The notes under the pieces are model-generated. The model searched no databases. It was given only the letters and a program-made list of their open reading frames with translations, and was not told where the DNA came from. This document shows positions 167 to 48,276 of a stretch of 64,000 nucleotides of DNA, piece by piece; the first letter of the stretch is position 1, and every line of letters begins with the position of its first letter. Source of the DNA: Natronolimnobius sp. AArcel1. Its GTDB lineage: Archaea; Halobacteriota; Halobacteria; Halobacteriales; Natrialbaceae. The position numbers and the translations under genes are program-made. Where the stretch lies: assembly GCF_011043775.1 (NCBI RefSeq), contig NZ_JAAKXY010000002.1:620001-684000 (forward strand), in the 5' to 3' direction.

Positions 167-1711
167 ATGACAGACCACACACCACACACGAACCACGACT
201 CGAACCGACCAGCACCCGACCAGCCTCGAGCGAGCCGTCGCGGCGTTATGAAAGCGATCGGTGCCGGTGCTGCAGCCGCAACTCTCGGCATCGCCGGCAT
301 CTCGCCGGCCGCAGCGACGCCCGACGTCTCCTTACCGACCGACGAGTTCGTCGAAACCGACGGCACCGAGTTCGTCATCGATGGCGAACCCGTCTACTTC
401 AACGGCGCGAACAACTTCTGGATCACCGACGACGACGCGAACGCGGCGACCGAGGAGCGCGTCGACGCCGTCTTCGACCTCTTCGATGAGTTGGGAATCA
501 ACCTCGTGCGCATCTGGGCCCACGGCGAGGCCAAGGAGGGCGAACTCGTCCTCCAGCCGGAACCCGGCGTCTACAACGAGGCGGCTCTCGAGCACCACGA
601 TTACGTGATCGAGGCCGCCCGCGAGCGCGGGATGAAACTCATCGTCGCCTTAGTCGACAACTGGGACCACGAAGGCGGCATGCTCCAGTACGCCGAGTGG
701 GCCGACGCGGAGTCGCGCTACGAGTTCTACACGATGGACGAGACTCGAGAGATGTACCGCAACCACGTCGAGACCATCCTCACGCGGGAGAATTCCTACA
801 GCGGCCTCGAGTGGCGCGACGATCCCACAATTGCGATGTGGGAACTCGCGAACGAGCCCCGACTCGAGCAGGACGACGTCCCCAACGATATGGACGATCT
901 CGAGCCGCCGGAACATCAGGAGATTCTCGGCGAGTGGATTCAGGAGATGTCGGCCTATATCAAAGACCTCGACGACAACCACCTCGTCTCGACGGGGTCG
1001 GAAGGCCACTACTACGGCCACTGGGAGGACGACTACCCGGACGACGACTGGGACGGCCAGGACTACCTCGAGCACCACTCCTACGACACGATTGACGCCG
1101 CCTCGTTCCACCTGTACCCCGACCACTGGGGCGACAACCCGGCAGATCCGGACGACCGGCTCTCCCTGCACGACGGCGCGGACTACATTACCGAGCGCGT
1201 CGAGGACGCACACAACGAACTGGGCATCCCGGCGTATCTCGGCGAGTTCAACGTCAATCTCTACGACCACGACCTCGAGACGCGCAATGAGTTCTTAGAG
1301 GAGTGGTACGACGCCGCCGATGCGGTCGACTGTAACGCCGTTATCCCGTGGCAGGTCGTCCTTGAGGACACGCAAGATCACGACGGCTTCCAGCTCTATG
1401 CGAGCGATTCGGGCTCCATCATCGAAGACTACGCCGAGGTCGTCGCTGAGAAAAGCGGTGACTGGGACGGTGACAACGGGAACGGCGACGAGGAAACAAT
1501 CGCCGTCGGCGAGTACAACACGACGGATACGACCAGCGATGGCCTGCACAACGATTTCACCGGTGATGGTGAGACGACCCACGACGACGTGACCGCCTTC
1601 TTTGAGAATCTCGAGGACGACGGCGTCCAGGACAATCCTGAGGCGTTCGACTTTGCCGAGAACGACGAACTCGGCTTTACGGACGTGGTTGAACTGCTCC
1701 GGCAGGTGTAG
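167..1711 (+). CDS. Secreted GH5 endo-beta-mannanase with C-terminal dockerin
   Basis: This 514-residue enzyme should hydrolyse internal beta-1,4-mannosidic bonds outside the cell. Residues 1-50 hold a Tat signal (SRRGVMK at 23-29, then an Ala/Gly-rich core). Residues 60-430 are a GH5 TIM barrel resembling fungal and plant type mannanases: FNGANNFW follows the first strand, the acid/base is E230 in MWELANEPR and the nucleophile is E360 in YLGEFNV. After a Gly/Asp linker, residues 459-514 form a dockerin-like module. Its loops are D463-D474 (DFTGDGETTHDD) and D495-D506 (DFAENDELGFTD). The same 56-residue ending is on six enzymes at 34.6-48.2 kb, so this is a distant member of that system. GH5 assignment is firm; mannan as substrate is inferred from overall resemblance. 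Confidence 0.88.
   Translation: MTDHTPHTNHDSNRPAPDQPRASRRGVMKAIGAGAAAATLGIAGISPAAATPDVSLPTDEFVETDGTEFVIDGEPVYFNGANNFWITDDDANAATEERVDAVFDLFDELGINLVRIWAHGEAKEGELVLQPEPGVYNEAALEHHDYVIEAARERGMKLIVALVDNWDHEGGMLQYAEWADAESRYEFYTMDETREMYRNHVETILTRENSYSGLEWRDDPTIAMWELANEPRLEQDDVPNDMDDLEPPEHQEILGEWIQEMSAYIKDLDDNHLVSTGSEGHYYGHWEDDYPDDDWDGQDYLEHHSYDTIDAASFHLYPDHWGDNPADPDDRLSLHDGADYITERVEDAHNELGIPAYLGEFNVNLYDHDLETRNEFLEEWYDAADAVDCNAVIPWQVVLEDTQDHDGFQLYASDSGSIIEDYAEVVAEKSGDWDGDNGNGDEETIAVGEYNTTDTTSDGLHNDFTGDGETTHDDVTAFFENLEDDGVQDNPEAFDFAENDELGFTDVVELLRQV
1541..1708 (+). repeat. Dockerin module copy 1 (mannanase)
   Basis: This segment codes for the 56-residue C-terminal module shared by seven enzymes in the window. 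It starts at GLHNDFTGDG and ends one codon before the stop. It lies about 33 kb from the other six copies. Confidence 0.85.
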
Positions 1712-34587: not shown

Positions 34588-36171
34588 TTAGACCTGCCTG
34601 AGGAGGGCAACGACATCCGCAAAGCCGACCTCGTCGTTTTCGGCGAAGTCGAACGCCTCAGGGTTGTTCTGGACTCCCTCATCCTCGAGATGCTCGAAAA
34701 AGACCGTCACGTCGTCGTGAGTTGTCTGGCCGTCGCCAGTGAGGTCGGTATACGCCCCATCACCGTTCGGATCGGTCGGTTGGGTTCCGCCGATCTCGGG
34801 CGGCCTTGAACCACCTTCTCCCGGCGGTGCCTCGCCGAGTTCAACGGCCCGTGTGTGCTGGACGAGCCAGTCCGTCACGTCGCCATCCGGAACCTCGAGG
34901 TCACGCGTCGTCGACTCGAGCTCAGGATAGCCGCCAACGTCGTCCTGGCTATCGATGATCGTGCCGGTTCGATTCTCGACATCAGCGAGGATCCGCTCAT
35001 CGGTGTCGGTCTTGTCTGCGGGGCGAGCGCCGGCGTGCGAGCGGACCTGATCGTACGGATCGTCGTCGATCGGCGTGAAGTTCTCGGGCCAGTACTCCTC
35101 GATCGGCTCGGATTCAATCTCCCACGGGGCGTCGGGTTCGACCAGTGTATACCCATCGTCGGAGACGTTGTTCGACGTGTGGAGGTAGATCGTCGGATCG
35201 TTCTCGTCGTGGTTGGTGTAGATGAGCGGTCGGTCCGTGTCCGCGTCGGGTCCGGTCCGATAGTGGTTGCCAACGACGTTGACGAAGGTGGGTTCGTCTA
35301 CGTCGTCGCCGATCCGCATCCCACGTTCGAAATTGTACCAGACGTTGTTCGCGACGGTGGCCTCTGTGCCGCCCTTGAGACGCGGGTTGCGACTCCACGT
35401 GTGGGCATAGAGATTGCCCAGAATTGCCGTTCGGTCAGCCCCGTTCCCGACGAGGCTGCCGTAGGCGCGCTGGTTATCGCTGCCGTGGGCCGGCGAGTCG
35501 AACAGCCCTTCCGCGATAAGGTTGTTACTGAACGTGATGTCTTCGGAGTGTTCGCTTGCATTGACCGACATCGACTCCTCACTGCCCCAACTCACAGAAC
35601 AGTGGTCAAAACAGACGTTGAAGCCATTATCGCCGACGACCATCGAATCCGACGGCCCGTCAATCTCGTCGCCCGGCCGCGAACGGATGTGTTGGACGAA
35701 CTGATTTTCCTCGTCGAACTCGAGGCCGGGTGAATCCGCTCGGATGAGCGTGATTCCGGGCGACGGCGCGGTCTGTCCAGCGACGTAGATGTTCGTTCGC
35801 TCGGCTTGTATATCCGTATTCTCGAGATCAATGACGCCGCCGACCTCGAAGACGATGAGTCGCCGACCGACATCTTCGGCGTCTAACTCGTCGTAGCCCA
35901 CTTCGCAGGCCCACTTGAACGACCCCTCGCCTGCCGCATCGAGGTTCGTTACCCGGACCACGACGAGTGGCCCCTCCTCGAGCCAGGACAGATCGGCGAA
36001 GCCGTCGTCGGGTGCAATCGGCGAACTCGGTGACTCTGTCCCAATGTTGTCAATCGTGACGACCTTACGATTGTCTCTCGTCTCCTGAGCGGTGATCGTC
36101 TGCGTGTTTTCAAGTGTCGCTGCGCCAAGGCCCGCTGCTCCCACAGTATGCAAGAAGCTTCTTCGATCCAT
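34588..36171 (-). CDS. Secreted PL1-like pectate lyase with C-terminal dockerin
   Basis: The 527-residue protein should cleave polygalacturonate by beta-elimination outside the cell. Residues 2-20 form a Tat signal (DRRSFLHTVG). The right-handed beta-helix domain spans about 35-440, with the PL1-type FDHCSVSWGSEE at 188-199 and RNPRLKGG at 261-268, where the Arg and Lys act in catalysis. A Pro/Gly linker leads to the 56-residue dockerin module (472-527), with loops DLTGDGQTTHDD and DFAENDEVGFAD. The ATG at 36171 is chosen because the Tat motif begins there. The upstream gap (36172-36432) is AT-rich near the gene and otherwise blank. Confidence 0.87.
   Translation of the reverse strand: MDRRSFLHTVGAAGLGAATLENTQTITAQETRDNRKVVTIDNIGTESPSSPIAPDDGFADLSWLEEGPLVVVRVTNLDAAGEGSFKWACEVGYDELDAEDVGRRLIVFEVGGVIDLENTDIQAERTNIYVAGQTAPSPGITLIRADSPGLEFDEENQFVQHIRSRPGDEIDGPSDSMVVGDNGFNVCFDHCSVSWGSEESMSVNASEHSEDITFSNNLIAEGLFDSPAHGSDNQRAYGSLVGNGADRTAILGNLYAHTWSRNPRLKGGTEATVANNVWYNFERGMRIGDDVDEPTFVNVVGNHYRTGPDADTDRPLIYTNHDENDPTIYLHTSNNVSDDGYTLVEPDAPWEIESEPIEEYWPENFTPIDDDPYDQVRSHAGARPADKTDTDERILADVENRTGTIIDSQDDVGGYPELESTTRDLEVPDGDVTDWLVQHTRAVELGEAPPGEGGSRPPEIGGTQPTDPNGDGAYTDLTGDGQTTHDDVTVFFEHLEDEGVQNNPEAFDFAENDEVGFADVVALLRQV
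34591..34758 (-). repeat. Dockerin module copy 2 (pectate lyase)
   Basis: This is the 56-residue C-terminal module in its most divergent form at the first loop: DL replaces DF and Q replaces E. Positions 10-11 of the loop are still His-Asp as in all copies. Confidence 0.85.
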
Positions 36172-36432
36172 CGTATAAATGAATGGAGTATGGCAATGAA
36201 ATAAATCCACGTCCCCCGAGCCGACTGCCGGTTGGCGTAGCGCTACATGCCTCTAGCTCCGTTTCAGGAACGTGCTCTCTCGTTCTCTTACAAATACCGG
36301 TGTTCTTAGTACAGCCACCACTTTCCGCTCACAAACAACTAACGAGAGACTGGTTGCACTCGTGACTACTCGCCAATCTTCGAATCCGTACAAAAATTGT
36401 CCTTGAGGGTGGTGACGCCGAAACCGTGGCTG

Positions 36433-37617
36433 TTAGACCTGGCGAAGCAGGTCAACCACATCTGCAAAGCTGACTTCGTCATTGCCGGCGAAGTCGAACG
36501 CCTCTGGGTTATTCTGGACGCTTTCATCCTCGAGGTTCTCGAAGAAGGCGGTCACATCATCGTGGGTGGTCTCGCCATCACCAGTGAAATCGTTGTGGAG
36601 GCCGTCGTCGGTGCTATCCTGGGTTTCGTACTCGCCGACCTCGATTGATTCTGGTTCGGGATCCGAGCCGTCTCCAGCATCGCTGCCGCTCTCGTAGGTC
36701 GTCCCGTTGACCGTCACATCGAGCGTGTTGTAGGTCACATCGCCCTGGACGCCACCCCAGTACTCATTTCCGACTTCGATGCCGCTGACCCACAGGTCCT
36801 CGCTGAGGCCGTAGCGCTCGCTCATGAAGTCGATAATTTCGCTCAGGTCAACCTGTCCCGTCGTCAGGCCGCCACTGACGCGGAAGATATGAAACGCAGC
36901 ATCGGTCCCGCCGCCACCGCTGTAGACCGTCCAGTAGTCGATTTCGTTGCCGAACTGATCGGTCCAGACTCCGGGTTCGTCGACGCCACCGTGGCTGTGC
37001 TCGTCGCTCCACTCGAGGACGAGCATGATCTCATGGGTGTGCGTCTCGATCTGCTGGTCGGGCGGCTGTTCCATCAGCCACCACTCCTCGGCGAGGTTCC
37101 ACTCGCCGCCGGAGACGTTGAGATCGATGTCGACCTCGAGCGTCAGTTCGTCAATATCGCCACGCTGGACCGGGAACGAGCCGACGTCGCTGTCGTCGCC
37201 CCAGGGTTTGGTGCCGAGTAAGACCTGCGGGTAGTTCGGTTCGCCACCGTCGGGGCGGGTAGTCCACTCGTAGCCGTAGCTGCCGTCCTCGGCAAGCCAG
37301 CTACACATCTCGAAGCCGCTGTCTTCGACGCTTTCCCCCCAATCGTTGTTGATCAACAGGAAGTCTCCGTCACCGACGTCGATCTCGCCGAAGGACTCAC
37401 AGGTTTCCTCGAGTGGCTGTGCGCCGGCAACAGCGGTCCCGCCGAGTGCGAGTGCGCCCGCCGTTGCGCCCGTTGCCTGGACGAACCGCCGTCTCGAGAG
37501 TGCGCGGCTGGTTTCGCCGTCGTCGTGACTTGCCGCGGCGTCCGGGTCACGCTGTGGGTGGTCGGTCGTCTCGGTTCGGTCACCGTCTGTGTTGTCCGCG
37601 TGTGGATTCGAATTCAT
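36433..37617 (-). CDS. Secreted GH12 endo-beta-glucanase with C-terminal dockerin
   Basis: The 394-residue protein has a Tat signal (SRRRFVQATG at 41-50) and a GH12 beta-jelly-roll at about 70-308. Family marks are LLINNDWG at 87-94, the probable nucleophile E196 in THEIMLVLEW and the probable acid/base E285 in EVGNEYWGG. GH12 enzymes act on cellulose, mixed-linkage glucan or xyloglucan. Residues 339-394 are the dockerin module. Its start lies 35 bases after the stop of the GH5 gene upstream, so the two are probably one operon. Confidence 0.85.
   Translation of the reverse strand: MNSNPHADNTDGDRTETTDHPQRDPDAAASHDDGETSRALSRRRFVQATGATAGALALGGTAVAGAQPLEETCESFGEIDVGDGDFLLINNDWGESVEDSGFEMCSWLAEDGSYGYEWTTRPDGGEPNYPQVLLGTKPWGDDSDVGSFPVQRGDIDELTLEVDIDLNVSGGEWNLAEEWWLMEQPPDQQIETHTHEIMLVLEWSDEHSHGGVDEPGVWTDQFGNEIDYWTVYSGGGGTDAAFHIFRVSGGLTTGQVDLSEIIDFMSERYGLSEDLWVSGIEVGNEYWGGVQGDVTYNTLDVTVNGTTYESGSDAGDGSDPEPESIEVGEYETQDSTDDGLHNDFTGDGETTHDDVTAFFENLEDESVQNNPEAFDFAGNDEVSFADVVDLLRQV
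36436..36603 (-). repeat. Dockerin module copy 3 (GH12)
   Basis: This codes for the 56-residue C-terminal module, with loops DFTGDGETTHDD and DFAGNDEVSFAD. Confidence 0.85.
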
Positions 37618-37652
37618 GGCTGTCTGTCGTGGAGGGTGCTCGAGTGCGATGC

Positions 37653-39281
37653 TCAGACCCGTCGAAGCAGTTCGACCACGTCTGCAAAGCCAACATCCTC
37701 GTCGTCAGCGAAGTCGAACGCGTCCGGATTGTTCTGGATACCCTCATCCTCGAGATTTTCGAAGAATGCGGTCACGTCGTCGTGGGTCGTCTCACCGTCG
37801 CCGGTGAAGTCGTTGTGCAGGCCGTCGTCAGTCGTGTCCGCAGGTGTGTACTCGCCGACCTGAATCGGCTCTGGCTCCGGATCGGAGTCGCCACCATCGC
37901 CCGGAAGCCCATCGTTGCGATAGGCCTCGAGTTGTGCTTTGACGTACTCGCCGGCGAACTCGTCGCCGCCCAGCAAGTCCCACTCACAGGGCAGGTCCTC
38001 GCAGTGGACGGGAATCTCGTCTTCGTAGGGGTGGCCAATGGAGTCGGTATCGTCCGGCTGTGTCGGGTCTTCGTCGAGAAACGACCGCGTGAACATGACT
38101 GGGCGCCAGATCGGATCGGCACACCAGGCCGTCCAGTGAATCGCGTCGCTCGACTCGAGCCACTCGAAGAAGGGGTCGGCAAAGTCGCTCGTCTGGCCGT
38201 AGAGTTCGGTCGCGCCGGCGTGGGTTGCCTCCCAACCGAACTCGGTGACGAACACCGGCACCTCCTCGTAGACGCCGTCGGTGCCCATGCCGTCGATGCC
38301 GACCTCGTCCCAGGCTTCGTCCTGGCTGACGACGTGACCCGAGTAGATGTGGTAGGCGTAGGCGAGGTTGTCGCCCTCGAAGGGCTCGATGTAGTAGCCC
38401 TCCGGGTTCTGACTCCAACTTGGCGAGCCGACGATGACGATATTGTCGGCGTGCTCGCGGATCGTATCCACCCATGGCTGGGCTAACTCCTTCCACAGTC
38501 GCCAGTTGTCTCTGACCCACTGGCGGTCGACCTCGGCCCACATGCCGGGTTCGGTCGGCTCGTTGTAGACCTCATAAAGGACGTGGTCGTCGTCAGCGTA
38601 TCTCGGCGCGACGATTTCCCAGAACATGTCGACCTCTTCTTGCAGGTCCTCGTTGATCGTCTCGTCTTGACTGTCTCCCCACATGCCGTCCCAGCCGTCC
38701 TCGGCGTCGTTATCCGTCCAATGGCGGTGGAAATCGACGATGGCGTAGACGCCCAGGTCGCCTAACTGCTCGATAATCGGATCGTAATGCGTCTCGAGGT
38801 ACTCCTCGAGTTCGGCCTCGGTGAACGCGACTGGGTCGGGCGGGCCGCCGGTGTGGCCGGGTTCGTGCTCGCCGATATCGACTGGCTGGGCGGGCACGCG
38901 GATGACTCTGGGATACCAGCCCTGGCTCTCGTCCGTGAGGAGGTCCACGACGTGTTCGGCGGCTTTTCCGCGTGCCGGTGCTGTCACGTTCAGGCGCTTC
39001 GGATCAGCGATGTTGAGTCCGCGGAGCGTGACGGTGTTTCCCTGCGGATCTTTGATCAGGTTTCCCTCAACGTGGAGTCGTGGCGTTGGAATGCCACGGC
39101 CCGTCTCCGCTGCGGCCGACGTTGTTGCCCCTGTGGCGAACCCTGCCGCGAGCGCTCCCGTCACAGCCGTTGACTGCAAGAAGCGCCGGCGCGTTGTCTG
39201 TCGGTCATTAGTGACTCCGTTCTCGAGGCGAGTTGCTGACTGGTCGTCTGTCTGCCCGTCTGTCGATGATGCGTATTTCAT
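37653..39281 (-). CDS. Secreted GH5 cellulase with C-terminal dockerin
   Basis: The 542-residue protein has a Tat signal (TRRRFLQSTA at 30-39) and a GH5 barrel from about 65 to 455. The acid/base is E241 in YEVYNEPTEPG and the nucleophile is E347 in VFVTEFGW; the strand VDFHRHW at 182-188 is also typical. The dockerin module is 487-542. It is a close paralogue of the next GH5 upstream, sharing GWYPR, PAQPxDIGEH and a CEWxLLGG segment. A TATA-like AAATATATG at 39319-39327 is about 40 bases before the ATG. Endoglucanase activity is the best guess. Confidence 0.87.
   Translation of the reverse strand: MKYASSTDGQTDDQSATRLENGVTNDRQTTRRRFLQSTAVTGALAAGFATGATTSAAAETGRGIPTPRLHVEGNLIKDPQGNTVTLRGLNIADPKRLNVTAPARGKAAEHVVDLLTDESQGWYPRVIRVPAQPVDIGEHEPGHTGGPPDPVAFTEAELEEYLETHYDPIIEQLGDLGVYAIVDFHRHWTDNDAEDGWDGMWGDSQDETINEDLQEEVDMFWEIVAPRYADDDHVLYEVYNEPTEPGMWAEVDRQWVRDNWRLWKELAQPWVDTIREHADNIVIVGSPSWSQNPEGYYIEPFEGDNLAYAYHIYSGHVVSQDEAWDEVGIDGMGTDGVYEEVPVFVTEFGWEATHAGATELYGQTSDFADPFFEWLESSDAIHWTAWCADPIWRPVMFTRSFLDEDPTQPDDTDSIGHPYEDEIPVHCEDLPCEWDLLGGDEFAGEYVKAQLEAYRNDGLPGDGGDSDPEPEPIQVGEYTPADTTDDGLHNDFTGDGETTHDDVTAFFENLEDEGIQNNPDAFDFADDEDVGFADVVELLRRV
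37656..37823 (-). repeat. Dockerin module copy 4 (GH5)
   Basis: This codes for the 56-residue C-terminal module. By eye it shares about 65 consecutive identical bases with copy 5 (near 37774-37838 and 39509-39573), much more similar than the barrels of the two enzymes. Confidence 0.85.
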
Positions 39282-39387
39282 ACCCTCTTACTACTCGTTC
39301 TGTGTGCTGACAGATTTCAAATATATGTGAAAATGTGTGTCAGCAGCGTGTGGTTGGAATGCGATACTGAGTCGCTGTGACCGCGGC

Positions 39388-41547
39388 TTACAGCTGACGC
39401 AGCAGTTCAGCGACGTCCGAGAAGGTAACGTCACCGCTGTCGGTGAAGTCGAACGCCTCGGGGTTGTCCTGGACGCCATCGTCTTCGAAGTTCTCGAAGA
39501 AGGCGGTCACGTCGTCGTGGGTCGTCTCACCGTCGCCGGTGAAGTCGTTGTGCAGGCCGTCGTCAGTCGTATCTTGGGCCGTGTACTCGCCGACCTGAAT
39601 ACCCTCCGAGGGCTCGCCGTTGTAGAGGTCCGGATCGTCGTAACCGGGGTCGGTCGTCCCCAGATCGAACGGCACCAGATCGTCGCGGTGAACCTCGAGT
39701 TGCTCTTTGATGTACTCGCCGCTGTCTTCGCCGCCGAGCAGTTCCCACTCGCAAGGCTGGTCTTCGACATCGGGACATGGTGCGCCGTCTGGCAGCGCTG
39801 CCCAGATGTCCTCGAGGTCGGTGTCGTAGAAGTTGTCGTTGACGAGAACCTCGTCAACGAGGTCGCCTTCGTCGGGCCCTTCTGGGAACTCGAACATCGT
39901 TGGGTACCAGCGAACGTCGGCACACCAGGCGATCCAGCTGATGCGGTCGTCGTCTTCGATCTGGTCGAAGAACGGAATGCCGTACTCTGGTAGCGTCCCC
40001 TGGCCAGTGGTCGTCCCGCGCAGCCAGTGGGCAACTTCTGGATCGTCGATCCAGCCGAACTCACTGATCGAGATGTGATGGAAGTCCATCGCATCCTGCA
40101 AGCCGGCGGCTTCGTAGCCTTCCCAGCCGTAACACGAGTCTTCGTAGACATCCTGATCCGGCTCGATGTATGGATCAGTCAACTCACCGTCTGTCTCTGC
40201 AGCGATGTCTTCGTGCCAGCTGTAGTTCGTATCGTTGAACCAGTTGTTGAGTTGGCTCACGTCGTGGCCGGCGTAGTTGTGCCAGGTGACGGCGATATTG
40301 TCGTAGCCGGCGTCGTTGAAGTCGTACCAGTACAGTCCCTGCAGCGACTGACACCAGCCGGGGACGCCGACCAGCAGCACCTGTTCGGGCTGGTGCTGTC
40401 GAATCTCGTCGATGATCGGCCCCATGAAGTCGTCGACGAACGTCTCCCACAGCGGCTCCTGTTTGAGCGCGCCACAGCCCTCAACTGGCCCCCAGATACC
40501 TGGCGCCGTTGGCTCGTTGTACGGCTCAAAGACCACGTGTGGCTCGTCGGCGTACCGGTCGGCGACGACGCTCCAGAACAGCAACGCCTCCTCGAGCAGT
40601 TCTTCGTTGACCTGCCAGTTGTCGTACTCGTACGGCGTGCCAGGGATGTCAGCATCGGTTTCGATGCCAGCCCAGTCTTCATCCGGATTGTCTCGGTACT
40701 GGTGGTCGCCTTCGTTGATGTACGTCGAGTCGACGTGACCCCACGATGCCGGCGTTGTCTCGTCGAAGGAGACGTACTGGTCCTCGTACGTGTTGTACGC
40801 CCAGTAGTTCGTGTACGGACTGTCGTATGGCAGGTGATTCTCTGCCGCGCCGGGGTCTTCCGTTCCCGGCGGCTGTTCGTGCCAGTGACGGTGGAAGTCG
40901 ACGATGGCGTAGACGCCGCGTTCCTTACAGCGCTCGACGAGTGGGTCGTAGTAGTTCTCGAGATAATCCTCGAGTTCGGATTCGGTGAACGCGACGGGCT
41001 GTGGCGGCTGCATCGCCCGTCGATTGTCACGAATTGCGTCCGGATTCTCGATATCTGGAGCCTCCGGGCGTAGGTTGCCATCGTCGTCGAAGTACTCCGG
41101 ACCGGCGTGGCCCATCGGGTGTTCGCCAATGTCCTGTGGCTGGGCAGGCAGGCGGATAGCGCGTGGATACCAGCCACGGTCGTTGTTGGTCATCATGTCG
41201 AGCAACTGTAGCGGGGTTTTCCCTCGCAGTTGGCTCGTCCGGTCGAGTCGCTTCGGATCAGGGATGCTGACCCCCCGCATCTTGAACGGTTCGCCCGACT
41301 CGTTGACGATTCGGTTCTGGCTATCAATCGTCAGGTCCTCAAACTCGCTGATGTTGCCCGCAACGCTGCCAGTAATGCCTGCGCCCAGCCCGATTGCGGC
41401 CGCGCTTGCACCGGCTGTTGCTCGCATCATCGACCGGCGCGACATCCTGATCGTCGGCTGTTCGCTCGCGCGGTCTAATGCCCGTCGTTTTGTGCTCTGA
41501 TTCGTCGATTCGCCCGTCTGCCGTCTGCTATTGTTGTTGTTGCTCAT
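39388..41547 (-). CDS. Secreted long GH5 cellulase with C-terminal dockerin
   Basis: The 719-residue protein is the largest enzyme of the cluster. A Tat signal (SRRSMMRATAG at 36-46) sits unusually far from the start; an ATG at residue 35 could be the real start. The GH5 barrel spans about 70-625, with acid/base E345 in FEPYNEPTAPG and nucleophile E496 in ISEFGW. Compared with its paralogue at 37653-39281 it has insertions near 225-310 and 440-520, with Cys pairs that could form disulphides. The dockerin module is 664-719. The upstream 150 bases are very AT-rich. Confidence 0.87.
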   Translation of the reverse strand: MSNNNNSRRQTGESTNQSTKRRALDRASEQPTIRMSRRSMMRATAGASAAAIGLGAGITGSVAGNISEFEDLTIDSQNRIVNESGEPFKMRGVSIPDPKRLDRTSQLRGKTPLQLLDMMTNNDRGWYPRAIRLPAQPQDIGEHPMGHAGPEYFDDDGNLRPEAPDIENPDAIRDNRRAMQPPQPVAFTESELEDYLENYYDPLVERCKERGVYAIVDFHRHWHEQPPGTEDPGAAENHLPYDSPYTNYWAYNTYEDQYVSFDETTPASWGHVDSTYINEGDHQYRDNPDEDWAGIETDADIPGTPYEYDNWQVNEELLEEALLFWSVVADRYADEPHVVFEPYNEPTAPGIWGPVEGCGALKQEPLWETFVDDFMGPIIDEIRQHQPEQVLLVGVPGWCQSLQGLYWYDFNDAGYDNIAVTWHNYAGHDVSQLNNWFNDTNYSWHEDIAAETDGELTDPYIEPDQDVYEDSCYGWEGYEAAGLQDAMDFHHISISEFGWIDDPEVAHWLRGTTTGQGTLPEYGIPFFDQIEDDDRISWIAWCADVRWYPTMFEFPEGPDEGDLVDEVLVNDNFYDTDLEDIWAALPDGAPCPDVEDQPCEWELLGGEDSGEYIKEQLEVHRDDLVPFDLGTTDPGYDDPDLYNGEPSEGIQVGEYTAQDTTDDGLHNDFTGDGETTHDDVTAFFENFEDDGVQDNPEAFDFTDSGDVTFSDVAELLRQL
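39391..39558 (-). repeat. Dockerin module copy 5 (long GH5)
   Basis: This codes for the 56-residue C-terminal module; the second loop is DFTDSGDVTFSD, the most divergent second loop of the seven. Confidence 0.85.
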
Positions 41548-41697
41548 TGTCGCCTCGTCAGTTGCTCGCAGTGTTCTTGTCCCGCGTTTCCTGCGAAGAC
41601 AGCTAATATTACAGTATAGATTATATTAAAACTAACTACTAATAAAGTGAAATAATTATGTGGGGAGGCTACGCTGTTGCTCCCGTTCTACCACGTC

Positions 41698-43434
41698 CTA
41701 GACGTCGTGAAGCAGGTCGACGACGTCCGCGAAGCCGATTTCGTCGTTGCCGGCAAAATCGAAGTCTTCCGCGTTCTGCTGGACCGCATCGTCCTCGAGG
41801 TTCTCGAAGAAGGCGGTCACGTCGTCGTGGGTGGTCTGGCCGTCACCGGTGAAGTCGTTCCGGAGGCCATCACCAGTCGTATCCTCGGGCGTGTAGTCGC
41901 CGACGACTGGGTCATCGTCGCCCTCTCCGTCGCCATCGACTGTAATTTCCAACTGGACAGGGGAAGTGGCGTCAGTGACTGAGACCTCTTGGGTCGCCGA
42001 TTCGCCGTTGACGGTGACCGTAACCTCGTGGTCGCCGTGGAACACTGCGGTCTCGAACTCGCCGCTGGCGTCGGTCGTCCCCGACTCGTCGGTCCACCAC
42101 TCATCGAAGACGAGGTCGACGTACTCGTCGTAGGCCGGCTTTTCGGTCCAGTCCTCCTCGTACAGCGGTGCGTCCGGATCGTCGCCCATTTCCGGGCCCC
42201 AGTGGACCGGGTCCCAGTGCCCCCACATGAGGAAGTCCTCGGCTTCGGGGTGACTGAAGAACGTCTTGAGGAACTGGTGGAGGTACTCGGCCTGCATCTG
42301 TCGATCCCAGCCGTCACCGAACATGTCGAATTCGGTGACCTTGAGGCCGGCGCCGTACTCGGCGTACTCGTCGAGCCGGGTCATCATCGTGTCGGGATCG
42401 ATGCGCTCGTGCTCATAGTGGTGAGACTGCATCCCGATGCCGTCGAGATCAATCCCACGCTCGTTCATCAAATAGTCGATCTGGTCATGGTACTGGTCGC
42501 GGGCGTAGCCGTGGTCGCCGTTGAGCGTATTATAGTCGTTGACCGCAATGTCGATGTCGTACCGGTCGGCGACCTCTTCACCGAACTCGTACCAGTCGCC
42601 CAGGATTTCTGCGGTCTCCGGCGTAACGTTGTCGCCCTCGACGGCCTCGATCATCGCCGGCTCGTGGAAGACCTCGTTGACGATCTCCCACTCCGTGATG
42701 TCGTCGCCGTAGTGTTCGATGATCGTCTCGATGTGATCCATTGACTCGGAGACGACGTAGTCGGGGTCGTGATCCGGCTCACCGGCTTCCTCCCAGTCTT
42801 CGCCCATCGCCTCGACGACCCGCGGCGGAATCGCGTGCGCGTCGATATTCCCCCACAGTGCGACGTGACCGCGCACGTCCATGTCTCGCTCACGCGCCCA
42901 CTCGACCGCGTCGTCGGCAATCTCGGTGTCGTCCTCCCAGATGTTCCACTTGTGGAGATTCTCGAGGACGATCATGTTGAAGTGCTCCTCGAGGGTTTCG
43001 GCGTAGCGCTCCTGATCTTCGTCGGTGTAGATATCCTCGCCCCACTCACTGCCCCGCGTGAGGAACTCGGCGTGGGCCATACACCCAAAGCCGAACTCGT
43101 GTTCCTGCTGTTCGATTTCGACCGTTGCGTCCGTGACAGACGAACCGTCCTCAGTCTCGACGACGACCTCGAGGTCACCCATTCGGTACTGTTCGATACG
43201 CTCGTCCGCGTCGGCTTCCCAGGATTCCTGTGCACCGACGGTTCCAGTGCTGCCCGCCGTAACGCCGAGGCCGGAAAGCCCGCCGACCAGTCCTGCAATG
43301 CCTATGCTCCGCAGATAGTCACGACGCTCGAGTGCGGCTGTGACGTCACGTTCTGCATTGTCTGTTACTGGCTGGTCGCCATCGGTTCGGTCCGCTTGCT
43401 CCGATCTCGTCGTATCGGTCTTGTCGTATGTCAT
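41698..43434 (-). CDS. Secreted GH10 endo-beta-1,4-xylanase with C-terminal dockerin
   Basis: The 578-residue protein has a Tat-like signal (ERRDYLRSIG at 36-45), then a small beta domain (80-115) often seen before GH10 barrels. The GH10 barrel spans about 115-445, with acid/base E254 in WEIVNEVFHEP and nucleophile E368 in LKVTEFDMFG. Residues 450-500 form a further beta domain (GEFETAVFHGDHEVTVTV). The dockerin module at 523-578 has GLRNDF instead of GLHNDF. It has no recognisable CBM of its own. Confidence 0.9.
   Translation of the reverse strand: MTYDKTDTTRSEQADRTDGDQPVTDNAERDVTAALERRDYLRSIGIAGLVGGLSGLGVTAGSTGTVGAQESWEADADERIEQYRMGDLEVVVETEDGSSVTDATVEIEQQEHEFGFGCMAHAEFLTRGSEWGEDIYTDEDQERYAETLEEHFNMIVLENLHKWNIWEDDTEIADDAVEWARERDMDVRGHVALWGNIDAHAIPPRVVEAMGEDWEEAGEPDHDPDYVVSESMDHIETIIEHYGDDITEWEIVNEVFHEPAMIEAVEGDNVTPETAEILGDWYEFGEEVADRYDIDIAVNDYNTLNGDHGYARDQYHDQIDYLMNERGIDLDGIGMQSHHYEHERIDPDTMMTRLDEYAEYGAGLKVTEFDMFGDGWDRQMQAEYLHQFLKTFFSHPEAEDFLMWGHWDPVHWGPEMGDDPDAPLYEEDWTEKPAYDEYVDLVFDEWWTDESGTTDASGEFETAVFHGDHEVTVTVNGESATQEVSVTDATSPVQLEITVDGDGEGDDDPVVGDYTPEDTTGDGLRNDFTGDGQTTHDDVTAFFENLEDDAVQQNAEDFDFAGNDEIGFADVVDLLHDV
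41701..41868 (-). repeat. Dockerin module copy 6 (GH10)
   Basis: This codes for the 56-residue C-terminal module; it ends in VVDLLHDV and has DFAGNDEIGFAD as second loop. Confidence 0.85.
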
Positions 43435-43552
43435 AGTTGAGTGCTCGAGTGATCGGCCACGTCTATCGGTTGTTTCCAGGTTGCCGGGTGCTCTCCAGTC
43501 GCGTCCGTGATCGACTCACTCGGCTATTCACGTATATTACACAGTGATAATT

Positions 43553-43568
43553 ATAAATATTATCTAGT
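43553..43568. promoter_or_regulatory. AT-rich shared element upstream of the GH10 gene
   Basis: ATAAATATTATTATCT lies 119-134 bases before the xylanase start. It resembles elements at 46200 and 48277, at similar distances from the scaffoldin and GH5 starts. Confidence 0.4.
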
Positions 43569-43693
43569 AAAAATAGGATATAATATCGGGTCGGTCGACC
43601 ATCACTCGATTGCGTCCGCCCGAAAACTACCCAACGGGGTGCATATCGGGAGTGTGATGACAGGGTGTGATGCCAGCACCCCTGTGTTTCCGA

Positions 43694-46063
43694 TTAGGAG
43701 ACGGTGATCTCGACTTCGTCAGTGGACTGACGATCGAGTTGGTCCGTCGCCGTCAGTGTCACCGTATAGGTTCCACTCGAGTCGTACGTGTGGTCGTTCC
43801 ACCAGCCGCTGGCGGTCGTGCCGTCGCCGAAGTCCCACTCGAGTGAGGCAATCCAGGCGTCGTTCGGTGACGTGTCGGTGACGCTGAATTCGAGTCGATC
43901 GCCAGCCGAGACGGATGTACTCGAGGGCTCCAGTTCGGCCAGATCGTCCTCGAGTGGAATCTCGCCGTCGAGTGGTTCCCAGGCACCGTTGATGTCGTAC
44001 TCGGGCTCTTGGCCTTGGTTCGTCCACTTGGCCTCCCAGTCTTCGCCCTCCCAGGAGACGCGCTCGCCTTCCTCGTAAAGGACGTCGGACTCCCATTCGG
44101 AGTAATCGCCCGGTTCGCCTGGGTCAGGGTCGTCCTCGTCGGTCGTCGCCGTCACCGTTGCGGTGTCGGTCTCGTCGCCATCGTCGTCAACGGCGCTGAC
44201 GCCGACTTCATACTCGGTGTCGTCATCGAGACCCGTCACCGTCGCACTCGAGGTCGTGGTATCGCTGTCGAGCGTGCCATCAACGTAGACGTTGAAGCTG
44301 GCTGCGTTTGCGTCGGCGCTCCAAGAGACCTCGATGGAACTCTCGGTTGTTTCGGCGACATCGAGGTCTTCGGGGACGACTGGCGACTCATCGACTGGTT
44401 CACCGTCGACGGACAGGGTTGCGGATTCGACGTCTGCGTCGATATCTTCGTCATCCAGATCCTCGATGCGGACGATTTCGACGTCGAGATCGGTCTCGCC
44501 GCCGGCTTCGCCCTCGAGTTCGACGTAGCCGAAGTCGATGTCGGTCGTGCCGGGGTCGAGCGGTTCAATAGCGCTGAGACGGACGGTGTCGCCATCGATA
44601 TCGACGTAGCTGATCGGTTCAGAGGTGTCTGGGAACGGCTCGCTGATGTCTGCGTCTGCAATCGAGGCGACGCTATCGTCGACGGTGAGATCGACCGTAA
44701 AGCCGAGCAGGCCGTCGGGTGCCTCCGAGAGGCCGAGGTCGACGGTCGTCGTGTCGCCAGTGTCGATCTCGTCGTCAGCTGGATCGACCGTGATCGTTGG
44801 CGTTTCCGGTGGCTCTTCACCGTCGACGGACAGCGTTGCAGACTCGACGTCTGCCTCAATATCTTCGTCATCCAGATCCTCGATGCGGACGATTTCGACA
44901 TCGATGTCGGTCTCGCCAGCGTCTTCGCCCTCGAGTTCGACGTGACCGAAGTCGATGTCGGTCGTACCGGGGTCGAGCGGTTCGATGGCACTGAGACGGA
45001 CAGTGTCGCCATCGATATCGACGTAGCTGATTGGTTCGGAGGTGTCTGGGAAGGTGTCGCTGATGTCAGCGTCAGCGATCGAAACGACGCTGTCATCGAT
45101 GGTGAGGTCAACGGTAAAGCCGAGCAGGCCGTCGGGTGCCTCCGAGAGGCCGAGGTCGACAGTCGTCGTCTCGCCAGATTCAATCTCGTTGTCTGCCAGA
45201 TCGACGGTTACCGTCGTCGTTTCCGGCGGCTCGTCGTCTTCTTCGTCCGTCGTTGCTGTCACCGTCTCAGTGTCAGTCTCGTCGCCGTCGTCGCCGACTG
45301 CGCTCACACCGATTTCGTACTCGGTGTCGGCCTCGAGACCGCTTAACGTTGCGCCGGCGGAACTGGTTTCGTCCTCGAGACTGCCGTCGAGATAGACGTT
45401 GTAGCTGGCCGCGTTCGCGTCGGCGCTCCAGTCGACTTCGATGGAACTCTCGCTCGTCGAGACGACCTCGAGGTCTGTTGGCGTACTTGGTGGCGACGGC
45501 TCGTCGTCGGGTTCGCCAACGGTCAGCGTCGGAGCGTCGTAATTGGCTTCTCGGATGACGTCGCTGTCCGGGTCGGTGAGTGCGAACTCGTCGAGTTCGA
45601 GGGTCGTTTCGCCCTCTTCCTCCTGGGCTTCGATGTGATAGGTTCCGACTTCGACTTCGGATTCCTCGATGTCAGCGATCCGTGGAAGCAAGATCGAGTC
45701 GACGCCGCCGCCTGCTTCCTCGATTTCGTCGTTCAGCTCGATTTCGAGCAACGAGTTATTGATGTCGACTTCAGTAATCAGTGCAACATCGGGATCGACC
45801 TCGAGCGTGACGTTGACGCCGGCCGAGCCGACTGGGGCATCCTCGAGCGAAACCGTTGCCGTTGTCGTTTCACCGGGGTCGACTTGTTCGTCAGCCAGTT
45901 CGGTGACGATGGTTGGAACGTCCTGTGCGGATGCCGCTGAGGCACCGAGTGTGAGCGCGCCTGCGCTCGCGCCGGCAGCTTTGATGAAGGTGCGGCGTGA
46001 GGTCGGTGTGCGATCTTCTGCGTCCTTTTCGTCTGTCGCGTGGGTTGTCGTGTCGTCGTTCAT
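43694..46063 (-). CDS. Scaffoldin-like secreted protein: three cohesin-like, two Fn3, CBM5/12 and PKD modules
   Basis: The 789-residue protein has a Tat signal (SRRTFIKAAG at 22-31). Cohesin-like domains lie at about 49-183, 283-414 and 421-553. Each begins with the pattern V(D/E)PGETTTxxVxL, continues with a DLTxDDS strand and ends with a VESATLSVDG type strand. Fn3 domains lie at 194-273 and 562-642. A CBM5/12-like module (652-699: VLYEEGERVSWEGEDWEAKW, then GQEPE and W695) should bind cellulose or chitin. A PKD domain (708-789, EWDFGDG) ends the chain. There is no dockerin or membrane anchor. Lying among six dockerin-bearing enzymes, it is the obvious assembly platform. The start at 46063 is set by the Tat motif; ATGs at 46099 and 46147 are in frame. 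That the modules are functional cohesins is inference from family resemblance and context. Confidence 0.85.
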   Translation of the reverse strand: MNDDTTTHATDEKDAEDRTPTSRRTFIKAAGASAGALTLGASAASAQDVPTIVTELADEQVDPGETTTATVSLEDAPVGSAGVNVTLEVDPDVALITEVDINNSLLEIELNDEIEEAGGGVDSILLPRIADIEESEVEVGTYHIEAQEEEGETTLELDEFALTDPDSDVIREANYDAPTLTVGEPDDEPSPPSTPTDLEVVSTSESSIEVDWSADANAASYNVYLDGSLEDETSSAGATLSGLEADTEYEIGVSAVGDDGDETDTETVTATTDEEDDEPPETTTVTVDLADNEIESGETTTVDLGLSEAPDGLLGFTVDLTIDDSVVSIADADISDTFPDTSEPISYVDIDGDTVRLSAIEPLDPGTTDIDFGHVELEGEDAGETDIDVEIVRIEDLDDEDIEADVESATLSVDGEEPPETPTITVDPADDEIDTGDTTTVDLGLSEAPDGLLGFTVDLTVDDSVASIADADISEPFPDTSEPISYVDIDGDTVRLSAIEPLDPGTTDIDFGYVELEGEAGGETDLDVEIVRIEDLDDEDIDADVESATLSVDGEPVDESPVVPEDLDVAETTESSIEVSWSADANAASFNVYVDGTLDSDTTTSSATVTGLDDDTEYEVGVSAVDDDGDETDTATVTATTDEDDPDPGEPGDYSEWESDVLYEEGERVSWEGEDWEAKWTNQGQEPEYDINGAWEPLDGEIPLEDDLAELEPSSTSVSAGDRLEFSVTDTSPNDAWIASLEWDFGDGTTASGWWNDHTYDSSGTYTVTLTATDQLDRQSTDEVEITVS
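44405..45217 (-). repeat. Tandem near-identical cohesin-like modules 2 and 3
   Basis: Two units of about 400 bases (44822-45217 and 44405-44803) encode almost the same 132 residues, including an identical run around DGLLGFTVDL and VRLSAIEPLDPGTTDID. The differences are few, indicating recent duplication or gene conversion. Module 1 is clearly diverged. Confidence 0.9.
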
Positions 46064-46199
46064 TGTGGGTGTCTCCTCGCTTGCTGTCTCCGATTCCATG
46101 CTGGTGCTCGCTCTCTCGCTCGTGCCCGCCAGCGATGGAAGGGACACATATTACAGCTCTATTCCGACAGATAATAAGATTTTTTATCGGCTGAATAAA

Positions 46200-46213
46200 T
46201 TAATATTATCTCT
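46200..46213. promoter_or_regulatory. AT-rich shared element upstream of the scaffoldin gene
   Basis: TTAATATTATCTCT lies 137-150 bases before the scaffoldin start. It differs at only one position from AATATTATGTCT upstream of the first GH5 gene over the 12-base core. Confidence 0.4.
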
Positions 46214-46280
46214 ATTTCTCGGAGTATGATGGGGGCTGGTCGATACTGACCGGCCCCATCTCGAGTATGTTAGTGCGTGC

Positions 46281-48161
46281 TTAGATTTCGTTGAGCAGTT
46301 CCACGACGTCTGCAAAGCTGACCTCGCCGTCGCCGGCGAAGTCGAACGCATCAGGGTTGCCCTGTACGTTTTCGTCCTCGAGGTTCTCGAAGAAGGCGGT
46401 CACGTCGTCGTGGGTGGTGTCGCCATCGCCGGTGAAGTCGTTGTGCAGGCCGTCGTCGGTGGTGTCTTCTGCGTTGTAGTCGCCGACCTGGATGCCGTCG
46501 TCATCGGCGTCAATCGGACCCGGGCCGATGTGCAGTGAGTTCTTCTCGTTGTCAGCATCTGGATACGGCTCGTCACCGGGGGCGAACTCGTCGCGGTCGC
46601 CAGCCATTTCCTGGTTCCACTCGTGCCACCAGGCACCGGGTGTGTCCTCGTTCAGGTAGTCCATCCAGTCATCAGCATCGGGTGCGCCGGATTCGCCATC
46701 TGGGCCAGGGTCGCCGTGTTCGAACATGTGCGGCTCCCAGCTGTGGTCGAAACACCACGCCAGTGGGTGGACATCGTACTCGAGCAGGAACTCCTCATAG
46801 CCCTCGATAAACGGCTCACAGTCGGCGTCTTCGGGATCCTGGTCGGGATCGGTCGTACAGTCCATCCACGGCGTATCGACTTCCTTGCCACCGCCTTCGA
46901 TCCAGCCGAACTCACTGAAGAAGATCGGTACGTGCTCGGATGGCTCGCCGATGTAGTCGCCGAGTGGCCGCATGTCTTCTTGCGTGTAGACGTGGGCCGT
47001 GTAACACATGTTCTCGGCGTCGAACTCGTTGTACGGTGCCCAGTAGGCGTACTGGCTCCAGCGTGGGCTGCCGATCGTGATGAGGTGGCCGGGTGCGTTC
47101 TCCTCGACCGTATCGACCCACGGCTGGGCACGGTCACGCCAGAGGTCGTACCAGCCTTTCATCTCGTCGAGTCGAACGTCGTAGTCGCCTTCGGCCTCGC
47201 CCGGTGCTTGCTCTGGGAAGGAAAGTTCACCTGCCTGACGCTCTGGGCCGCCCCAGTCGCCGCCGTACGGGCCGGTTGGCTCGTTGTAGACGTCGAAAAT
47301 GACGTGGTCGTCGCCTGCATACCGGTCGGCGATGACCTCCCAGAACGTGTGCAGTTCGTCGTCGAGCGCGTTCGAAATTTCAGCCGGCTCGAGGTAGATA
47401 TCGTCTTCGTCGAGGTCGAACGCTTCAACGATGTTTTGGTCGTCGATAAGACTCCAGATGTCGTCGACCTGGTCCTCGCCGTGCCAGAGAACGCCGCGTT
47501 CGCCACAGACTTCCGAATTGCGCCAGCTTTCGCCGCCATCGGAGTCACACTGCCAGATGTCGTACGGAATATCGTGGTTTGCGTGGTCTTCCTGGTGGAA
47601 AACCGGATAGTGGCGGTGGTAGTCAATCATCACGTAAGCGCCGCGCTCGGCACCCATGTCGACGAGTTCGTCGAGATACGTCTGGCAGTACCACTCGACG
47701 TCGCTCGCATCGAACGAGCCGGGGAGCAGCGGTCCCCAGTCGTCGCCGTGTGGCATCTGTCCCGGTTCTGGTGCCTGCGTACCGGCGGAGATGAACTCAG
47801 CTTGAACCGGGATGCGGACGATGTTCGTGTACCAGCCTTCGCTCTCGTCAGTCGCCAACTCGAACGTTTCGGGTGCGGTCTGTCCGCGCCAGTCACGACT
47901 CTGCTCGCCCGGGTCGGCGATGTTGACGCCACGGAGAATTACCTCGTTCCCGCTCGGGTCGACGATTTTGTTTCCGTCGCGTGCAAGCGGCGGCAGATCG
48001 GCTGCCTGCCCCGCTGCACTGCCGGCGACCGCCCCAAGGCCACCAACTGCGAGGACGCTTGCGCCAGTTGCCTTCATAATAGACCGCCGTGACGTCGAGA
48101 TTCCTCGACGCCCGCCAGTTGCCTGTGCTGCTCGGTCAGATGGATTCGTGTTCTCGGTCAT
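46281..48161 (-). CDS. Secreted GH5 cellulase with C-terminal dockerin
   Basis: The 626-residue protein is the most upstream gene of the cluster in the direction of transcription. The Tat signal is SRRSIMKATG at 24-33. The GH5 barrel runs from about 60 to 525, with acid/base E294 in FDVYNEPTGPYG and nucleophile E417 in IFFSEFGW; DYHRHY at 180-185 is typical. Cys residues at 205, 219, 434 and 448 may form disulphides. The dockerin module is 571-626, with the most canonical second loop, DFAGDGEVSFAD. The start is the ATG at 48161; the frame is open to 48236 without signal-peptide character. Confidence 0.87.
   Translation of the reverse strand: MTENTNPSDRAAQATGGRRGISTSRRSIMKATGASVLAVGGLGAVAGSAAGQAADLPPLARDGNKIVDPSGNEVILRGVNIADPGEQSRDWRGQTAPETFELATDESEGWYTNIVRIPVQAEFISAGTQAPEPGQMPHGDDWGPLLPGSFDASDVEWYCQTYLDELVDMGAERGAYVMIDYHRHYPVFHQEDHANHDIPYDIWQCDSDGGESWRNSEVCGERGVLWHGEDQVDDIWSLIDDQNIVEAFDLDEDDIYLEPAEISNALDDELHTFWEVIADRYAGDDHVIFDVYNEPTGPYGGDWGGPERQAGELSFPEQAPGEAEGDYDVRLDEMKGWYDLWRDRAQPWVDTVEENAPGHLITIGSPRWSQYAYWAPYNEFDAENMCYTAHVYTQEDMRPLGDYIGEPSEHVPIFFSEFGWIEGGGKEVDTPWMDCTTDPDQDPEDADCEPFIEGYEEFLLEYDVHPLAWCFDHSWEPHMFEHGDPGPDGESGAPDADDWMDYLNEDTPGAWWHEWNQEMAGDRDEFAPGDEPYPDADNEKNSLHIGPGPIDADDDGIQVGDYNAEDTTDDGLHNDFTGDGDTTHDDVTAFFENLEDENVQGNPDAFDFAGDGEVSFADVVELLNEI
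46284..46451 (-). repeat. Dockerin module copy 7 (GH5)
   Basis: This codes for the 56-residue C-terminal module, where both loops keep a D-x-x-G-D-G start. Confidence 0.85.
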
Positions 48162-48276
48162 GGTCAGTTGATCGCATCCCGCTGCGAACGCCTCGAGCCG
48201 CGGAACGCAAAGGGCCGTCAACGACCCTCTCGACATACTTACTCGAGATACGATATGAAATTTACTTCTAGAAGAC

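What the first reader, a model, noticed from the sequence alone, without database searches (positions are those of the whole stretch)
43694..46063. Scaffoldin has the only recognisable CBM in the system and no surface anchor
The enzymes show catalytic domain plus dockerin and no recognisable CBM, while the scaffoldin has a CBM5/12-like module with W and Y positions. This division of labour is the hallmark of a cellulosome. The scaffoldin has no dockerin, membrane helix or sortase-like signal, so the complex would be free or bound through the CBM or PKD domain.
Basis: partly seen in the sequence, partly recalled or inferred. Interest (0 to 1): 0.8.

Follow-up and report, generated by a model that had tools for sequence, protein, structure and literature searches.

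The report
Anchor-free cellulosome-like scaffold in a haloarchaeon
A salt-loving archaeon appears to glue cellulose- and xylan-cutting enzymes onto a secreted, substrate-binding scaffold protein, a design known so far as a true cellulose machine only from anaerobic bacteria and fungi, although no binding has been shown and the scaffold's carbohydrate-binding domain is not the only one in the system.

Summary
The protein at 43694-46063 (-) is Tat signal / cohesin / Fn3 / cohesin / cohesin / Fn3 / CBM5/12 / PKD, with no dockerin, lipobox, membrane helix or PGF-CTERM. The seven dockerin enzymes of the window carry no recognisable CBM. The cohesin modules, invisible to Pfam's cohesin model, fold as cohesins (AF2 pLDDT 90.5; the 38 best PDB matches are all cohesins). 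Across 392 Halobacteriales genomes they co-occur with these dockerins (124 of 128 against 31 of 264).
Two parts of the claim fail more widely. A dockerin-bearing GH43 carries a ricin-B (CBM13-type) lectin, and a dockerin protein without catalytic domain carries a jelly-roll that sits in scaffoldins of other haloarchaea. Lack of an anchor is the commoner state but not universal: 3 of 10 orthologous scaffoldins have a neighbouring single-cohesin protein with a PGF-like C-terminus; this genome has no such partner of the same cohesin class.
The division of labour is supported by paralogues: GH10 and GH12 copies without dockerin end in CBM5/12 or PKD instead. Best reading: a small, secreted, substrate-bound archaeal cellulosome, new in host, export route and cohesin subfamily. 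Binding itself is untested.

The parts
43694..46063 (-). scaffoldin gene (789 aa)
   Evidence: ORF and Pfam architecture; orthologues in Natrialbaceae
45926..46063 (-). Tat signal peptide (SRRTFIKAAG...; no lipobox Cys)
   Evidence: Pfam TAT_signal 20.8 bits; sequence
45506..45916 (-). cohesin 1 (N-terminal class, about 31% identical to cohesin 2)
   Evidence: separate clade in tree
45248..45490 (-). fibronectin type III module 1 (approximate limits)
   Evidence: Pfam fn3, 2 stretches
44816..45217 (-). cohesin 2
   Evidence: AF2 pLDDT 90.5, pTM 0.83; Foldseek to PDB cohesins E 9e-9
44399..44800 (-). cohesin 3 (88% identical to cohesin 2)
44150..44374 (-). fibronectin type III module 2
   Evidence: Pfam fn3 564-638
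43979..44098 (-). CBM5/12-like module; one of the two usual adjacent aromatics replaced (KWT)
   Evidence: conserved in orthologues
43700..43921 (-). PKD domain, C-terminus
   Evidence: Pfam PKD_4 59.7 bits
46281..48236 (-). GH5 enzyme with C-terminal dockerin (46284-46499)
41698..43434 (-). GH10 enzyme with C-terminal dockerin (41701-41916)
39388..41547 (-). GH5 enzyme with C-terminal dockerin (39391-39606)
37653..39281 (-). GH5 enzyme with C-terminal dockerin (37656-37871)
36433..37617 (-). GH12-like enzyme with C-terminal dockerin (36436-36651)
   Evidence: PDB GH12-type cellulase match E 6e-6
34588..36210 (-). pectate-lyase-like enzyme with C-terminal dockerin (34591-34803)
   Evidence: NCBIfam PelZ 219 bits, far below its cut-off
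167..1711 (+). GH5 enzyme with C-terminal dockerin (1493-1708), remote from the cluster

Best explanation
A small archaeal cellulosome-like system that is secreted and bound to substrate, not to the cell. The three cohesin modules bind the C-terminal dockerins of Tat-exported GH5, GH9, GH10, GH12 and pectate-lyase-like enzymes. The scaffoldin's CBM5/12, probably with its PKD domain, holds the complex on insoluble polysaccharide. Because the scaffoldin has neither dockerin nor membrane or archaeosortase anchor, and no anchored cohesin of its class exists in this genome, the complex is expected to be released. Three cohesins against 13 dockerin proteins means a mixture of complexes of up to three enzymes. 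Shown: anatomy, cohesin fold, lack of anchor, co-occurrence, module exchange between paralogues. Inferred: binding, stoichiometry, substrate.
For: Cohesin fold: AF2, the 38 best PDB matches all cohesins. Dockerins: 13 in the genome, one in each of the six enzyme genes clustered with the scaffoldin; homologues in Halopiger pass Pfam's Dockerin_1 cut-off (29.0 against 22.9 bits); profile matches the CelS dockerin (E 0.0015). Co-occurrence in 392 genomes: 124/128 against 31/264, while Pfam-type cohesins show 71/143. Paralogue exchange: GH10-dockerin (window, C6) versus GH10-CBM5/12 (C4); GH12-dockerin (window) versus GH12-PKD (C6). Architecture conserved in 8 aligned orthologues. Other haloarchaea have larger scaffoldins: GH5 plus 8 cohesins, and 5 cohesins plus dockerin.
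Against: No binding data. Dockerin fold search gives dockerins as the best seven matches but none significant (E >= 0.42), and this genome's dockerins stay below Pfam's cut-off. The second calcium loop is degenerate (DFAGND). The CBM is a weak match and has lost one aromatic. Two dockerin proteins carry their own (known or likely) binding modules. Co-occurrence was not corrected for phylogeny. Two Pfam-type cohesin proteins with C-terminal helices exist in the genome and were not excluded as anchors.
Confidence: 0.66

Rival explanations
1. The same enzymes are mainly held at the cell surface: dockerins bind membrane-anchored single cohesins, and the scaffoldin is a side branch.
For: In G208, G338 and G350 a 242-245-aa single-cohesin protein with a twin-arginine-type start and a PGF-like C-terminus lies next to the scaffoldin, and in G350 its cohesin is 75-82% identical to the scaffoldin's cohesins 2/3 but at most 60% to those of other genomes, suggesting shared specificity. 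This genome has two Pfam-type cohesin proteins with C-terminal helices, one about 9 kb from the GH10/GH9 dockerin genes.
Against: No anchored cohesin of the scaffoldin class in this genome or its congener; the one relative (C5:536491, 406 aa) has no C-terminal helix. The Pfam-type protein is nearly universal in the family whether or not dockerins occur. The PGF_CTERM matches are below cut-off.
Confidence: 0.18
2. The 'dockerin' domains are substrate-binding or stabilising calcium modules, as the published annotations of haloarchaeal enzymes suggest, and the 'scaffoldin' is an unrelated adhesin.
For: PMC10963439 describes the dockerin as participating in substrate binding. Dockerin scores in this genome are sub-threshold.
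Against: Cohesin fold, tight co-occurrence, adjacency of cohesin and dockerin genes in widely separated haloarchaea.
Confidence: 0.07
3. The CBM5/12-PKD end targets chitin, or cell-surface or biofilm polysaccharide, so the scaffold is an adhesion device for enzymes rather than a cellulose-degrading machine.
For: Closest solved relatives of the CBM are chitinase domains, and one of two adjacent aromatics is missing in all aligned orthologues.
Against: Partner enzymes are of cellulase, xylanase and pectin-lyase families; a free GH10 and a GH11-like protein of the same genome also use CBM5/12.
Confidence: 0.09

Closest known systems
Bacterial cellulosome with a simple scaffoldin (e.g. Clostridium cellulolyticum CipC, C. 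acetobutylicum; family knowledge)
   Same: secreted non-catalytic protein with several cohesins and one CBM; clustered genes of dockerin enzymes lacking CBMs; no covalent anchor in the scaffoldin; cohesin fold closest to C. acetobutylicum CaCohA2
   Different: archaeal host; Tat rather than Sec export; extremely acidic proteins; CBM5/12 plus PKD instead of CBM3a; only 3 cohesins of two classes; cohesins not detected by Pfam
Archaeal non-cellulosomal cohesins/dockerins (Archaeoglobus fulgidus; ANME archaea, PMC9012536)
   Same: archaeal cohesin fold (2xdh); ANME have proteins with up to 5 cohesins and a dockerin
   Different: those are not linked to polysaccharide-degrading enzymes; here the dockerins sit on cellulases and xylanases and the scaffoldin carries a CBM
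Natronoglomus mannanivorans cellulase island (PMC10963439)
   Same: GH5/GH10 cluster with an 815-aa Tat-exported 'Dockerin/PKD family' protein and a 258-aa 'S-layer glycoprotein' with 2 TM helices: probably scaffoldin and anchored cohesin (inference, sequences not seen)
   Different: the authors do not mention cohesins or a scaffoldin; several of those enzymes have CBM6 or CBM5

Membership tests
cellulosome | non-catalytic scaffoldin with several cohesin modules | tested here: met
   three modules; cohesin fold by AF2 and Foldseek
cellulosome | several enzymes with a dockerin of two EF-hand-like repeats | tested here: met
   13 proteins by profile; first loop canonical, second partly degenerate; Pfam sub-threshold here, above cut-off in Halopiger homologues
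cellulosome | dockerin folds like solved dockerins | tested here: inconclusive
   AF2 pLDDT 89.5; best seven PDB matches are dockerins but E >= 0.42
cellulosome | cohesin-dockerin binding and isolated multi-enzyme complex | not testable with these tools
   only genome co-occurrence
cellulosome | CBM on the scaffoldin that targets enzymes | tested here: met
   CBM5/12 by Pfam, borderline score; substrate not tested
   true in the window; GH43-RicinB-dockerin elsewhere in the genome, RGL11-RicinB-dockerin in relatives
cellulosome | cell-surface anchoring (many, not all, cellulosomes) | tested here: not met
   no anchor in the scaffoldin, no anchored cohesin of this class in the genome
Pfam Cohesin PF00963 | profile match over the curated cut-off | tested here: not met
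   no match on the scaffoldin

The most novel reading that the evidence does not exclude
A true cellulosome in an aerobic, extremely halophilic archaeon, exported folded through Tat, in which partly assembled units cross the membrane together: the CBM-like jelly-roll-dockerin subunit has no signal peptide in either of two species and would be carried out bound to a cohesin.
Probability: 0.2. Interest if true: 0.88.

Novelty: new variant of a known kind. Interest (0 to 1): 0.76.

Why it matters
Cellulosomes are known from anaerobic bacteria and fungi. The papers read here say archaea with cohesins lack cellulosomal scaffoldins (PMC9012536, citing Peer 2009) and that haloarchaeal cellulose degradation is mechanistically almost unknown (PMC10267330). 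Recognising a cohesin subfamily that Pfam misses turns scattered 'dockerin' annotations into a testable scaffold system, and offers salt-stable, acidic cohesin-dockerin pairs.

Tried and rejected
Pfam-type cohesin proteins as the system's anchor: nearly universal in the family and only weakly linked to dockerins, so not adopted, but not excluded. C5:536491 (406 aa) as anchored partner: cohesin-like but ends without a helix and no continuation in other frames. CBM6 in the genome: none. Identity of the jelly-roll: no solved relative, only marginal CBM_11 in 2 of 13 members. Named-genome scan for orthologues returned only three loci. Some first coordinate choices failed. Literature searches for archaeal cellulosomes found none in the held library.

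Full report
What is in the window. The ORF 43694-46063 (-) encodes 789 aa with a Tat signal, three modules that match each other (two at 88% identity, the first at about 31%), two fn3 domains, a CBM5/12-like module and a C-terminal PKD domain. It has no cysteine, no hydrophobic stretch long or strong enough for a membrane helix, no dockerin and no PGF-CTERM. All six enzyme genes of the minus-strand cluster around it (34588-48236) end in a dockerin-like domain with conserved loops, and a seventh lies at 167-1711. None of the seven has a recognised CBM.

Are the repeated modules cohesins? Pfam's cohesin model does not find them. A structure of cohesin 2 predicted from ten homologous modules has pLDDT 90.5 and pTM 0.83, and its 38 best matches among all solved structures are cohesins, first C. 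acetobutylicum CaCohA2 (E 9e-9, TM 0.81), and including the A. fulgidus cohesin. That settles the fold. By sequence alone the best solved relative is scaffoldin C of R. flavefaciens at E 0.043.

Are the partner domains dockerins? By sequence they match the CelS dockerin (E 0.0015) and Pfam Dockerin_1 just below cut-off here (21.1 against 22.9 bits), and above it in Halopiger homologues (29.0 bits). The predicted fold returns dockerins first, but without significance, so the fold is inconclusive.

Do the two go together? In 392 Halobacteriales genomes, 124 of 128 with the cohesin also have the dockerin, against 31 of 264 without it (Fisher p about 3e-66; not corrected for relatedness). Pfam-type cohesins are only weakly linked (71 of 143). 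Gene pairs or clusters of the two occur from Natrialbaceae to distant haloarchaeal families.

Division of labour. In this genome 13 proteins carry the dockerin. Besides the seven in the window: GH5 and a jelly-roll protein (C2), GH9 and GH10 (C6), GH43 with a ricin-B lectin and an alpha/beta hydrolase (C4). So the scaffoldin's CBM is not the only binding module. Enzymes thus tend to have either a dockerin or their own targeting module, the GH43 being the exception. Relatives add RGL11 lyases with ricin-B plus dockerin.

Anchor. Ten genomes have this type of scaffoldin. In three (G208, G338 = Natrinema salsiterrestre, G350) a 242-245-aa single-cohesin protein with a twin-arginine-type start and a PGF-like C-terminus stands beside it; PGF_CTERM scores are below cut-off. 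Its cohesin belongs to the same clade as scaffoldin cohesins 2/3, and in G350 is 75-82% identical to them, so it probably takes the same enzymes. In this genome and its congener a profile built from anchored cohesins finds only the scaffoldin, plus in this genome a 406-aa protein without C-terminal helix. So free or substrate-bound is the best reading here, with the Pfam-type helix-bearing proteins C2:80216 and C6:99227 as untested alternatives. As the scaffoldin has no dockerin, an anchored cohesin could not hold it anyway; it could only compete for enzymes.

The CBM. It is closest to chitinase chitin-binding domains. In this and all aligned orthologues the motif reads W-T (KWT, QWT or RWT), where the CBM5/12 of free enzymes in the same genome reads QWWT or QWHT. 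From memory, two adjacent aromatics carry binding in CBM5; weaker or altered binding is therefore possible.

Two cohesin classes. Cohesin 1 forms its own clade in all orthologues, cohesins 2/3 another. Dockerins also come in two N-terminal forms (VGEY...DTT and PTDPNGDG). A match between the two is a guess.

Where it comes from. Genome size (4.56 Mb) and family suggest Natronolimnobius sp. AArcel1, which grows on cellulose (PMC10267330); this is inference from size only.

What is known. PMC9012536 states that archaea with cohesins or dockerins lacked large scaffoldins, ANME excepted. PMC10963439 lists a cluster with an 815-aa 'Dockerin/PKD' protein and reads the dockerin as substrate-binding. 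No paper found in the held library describes a haloarchaeal scaffoldin; subscription journals were not searched.

Noticed in passing
L024:12572-13300 (G000 C2:617571-618299); L099:4272-4997: 242-aa jelly-roll plus dockerin protein without any signal peptide in two species, while the other dockerin proteins of this genome carry a twin-arginine start: possible piggyback export.
   Followed up: partly
L108:9986-10378, L115:8616-9011, L024:13571-13957: The same jelly-roll module is fused to multi-cohesin scaffoldins in other haloarchaea and heads a 579-aa protein next to the window; likely an unrecognised CBM family.
   Followed up: partly
L111:4766-8317, L114:2890-6387, L117:3650-7085, L112:163-3750, L113:2021-4678, L096:2325-5881: Widespread haloarchaeal gene: PhoX-like phosphatase ending in cohesin then dockerin (6 of 6 scanned); in five of the six loci a single-cohesin protein with C-terminal helix lies next to it. 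Could form chains on the cell surface.
   Followed up: partly
L108:4976-10378 (G365), L107:3-3563 (G174, runs off the contig): GH5 catalytic domain fused to eight or at least five cohesins: catalytic scaffoldins.
   Followed up: partly
L115:6105-9224 (G265), L110:12143-13849 (G166), L109:4626-6272 (G061): Proteins with 3-5 cohesins plus a C-terminal dockerin, i.e. candidate adaptor scaffoldins in other haloarchaeal families.
   Followed up: no
window 29617-34563: 1648-aa multi-PAS, GAF, BAT, HTH_10 regulator directly beside the enzyme cluster; a candidate regulator.
   Followed up: no
L025:9228-10193 (C6:99227-100192); L028:2217-3113 (C2:80216-81112): Pfam-type cohesin proteins with C-terminal helix (one PGF-like); this kind is near-universal in Natrialbaceae, function unknown.
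   Followed up: partly
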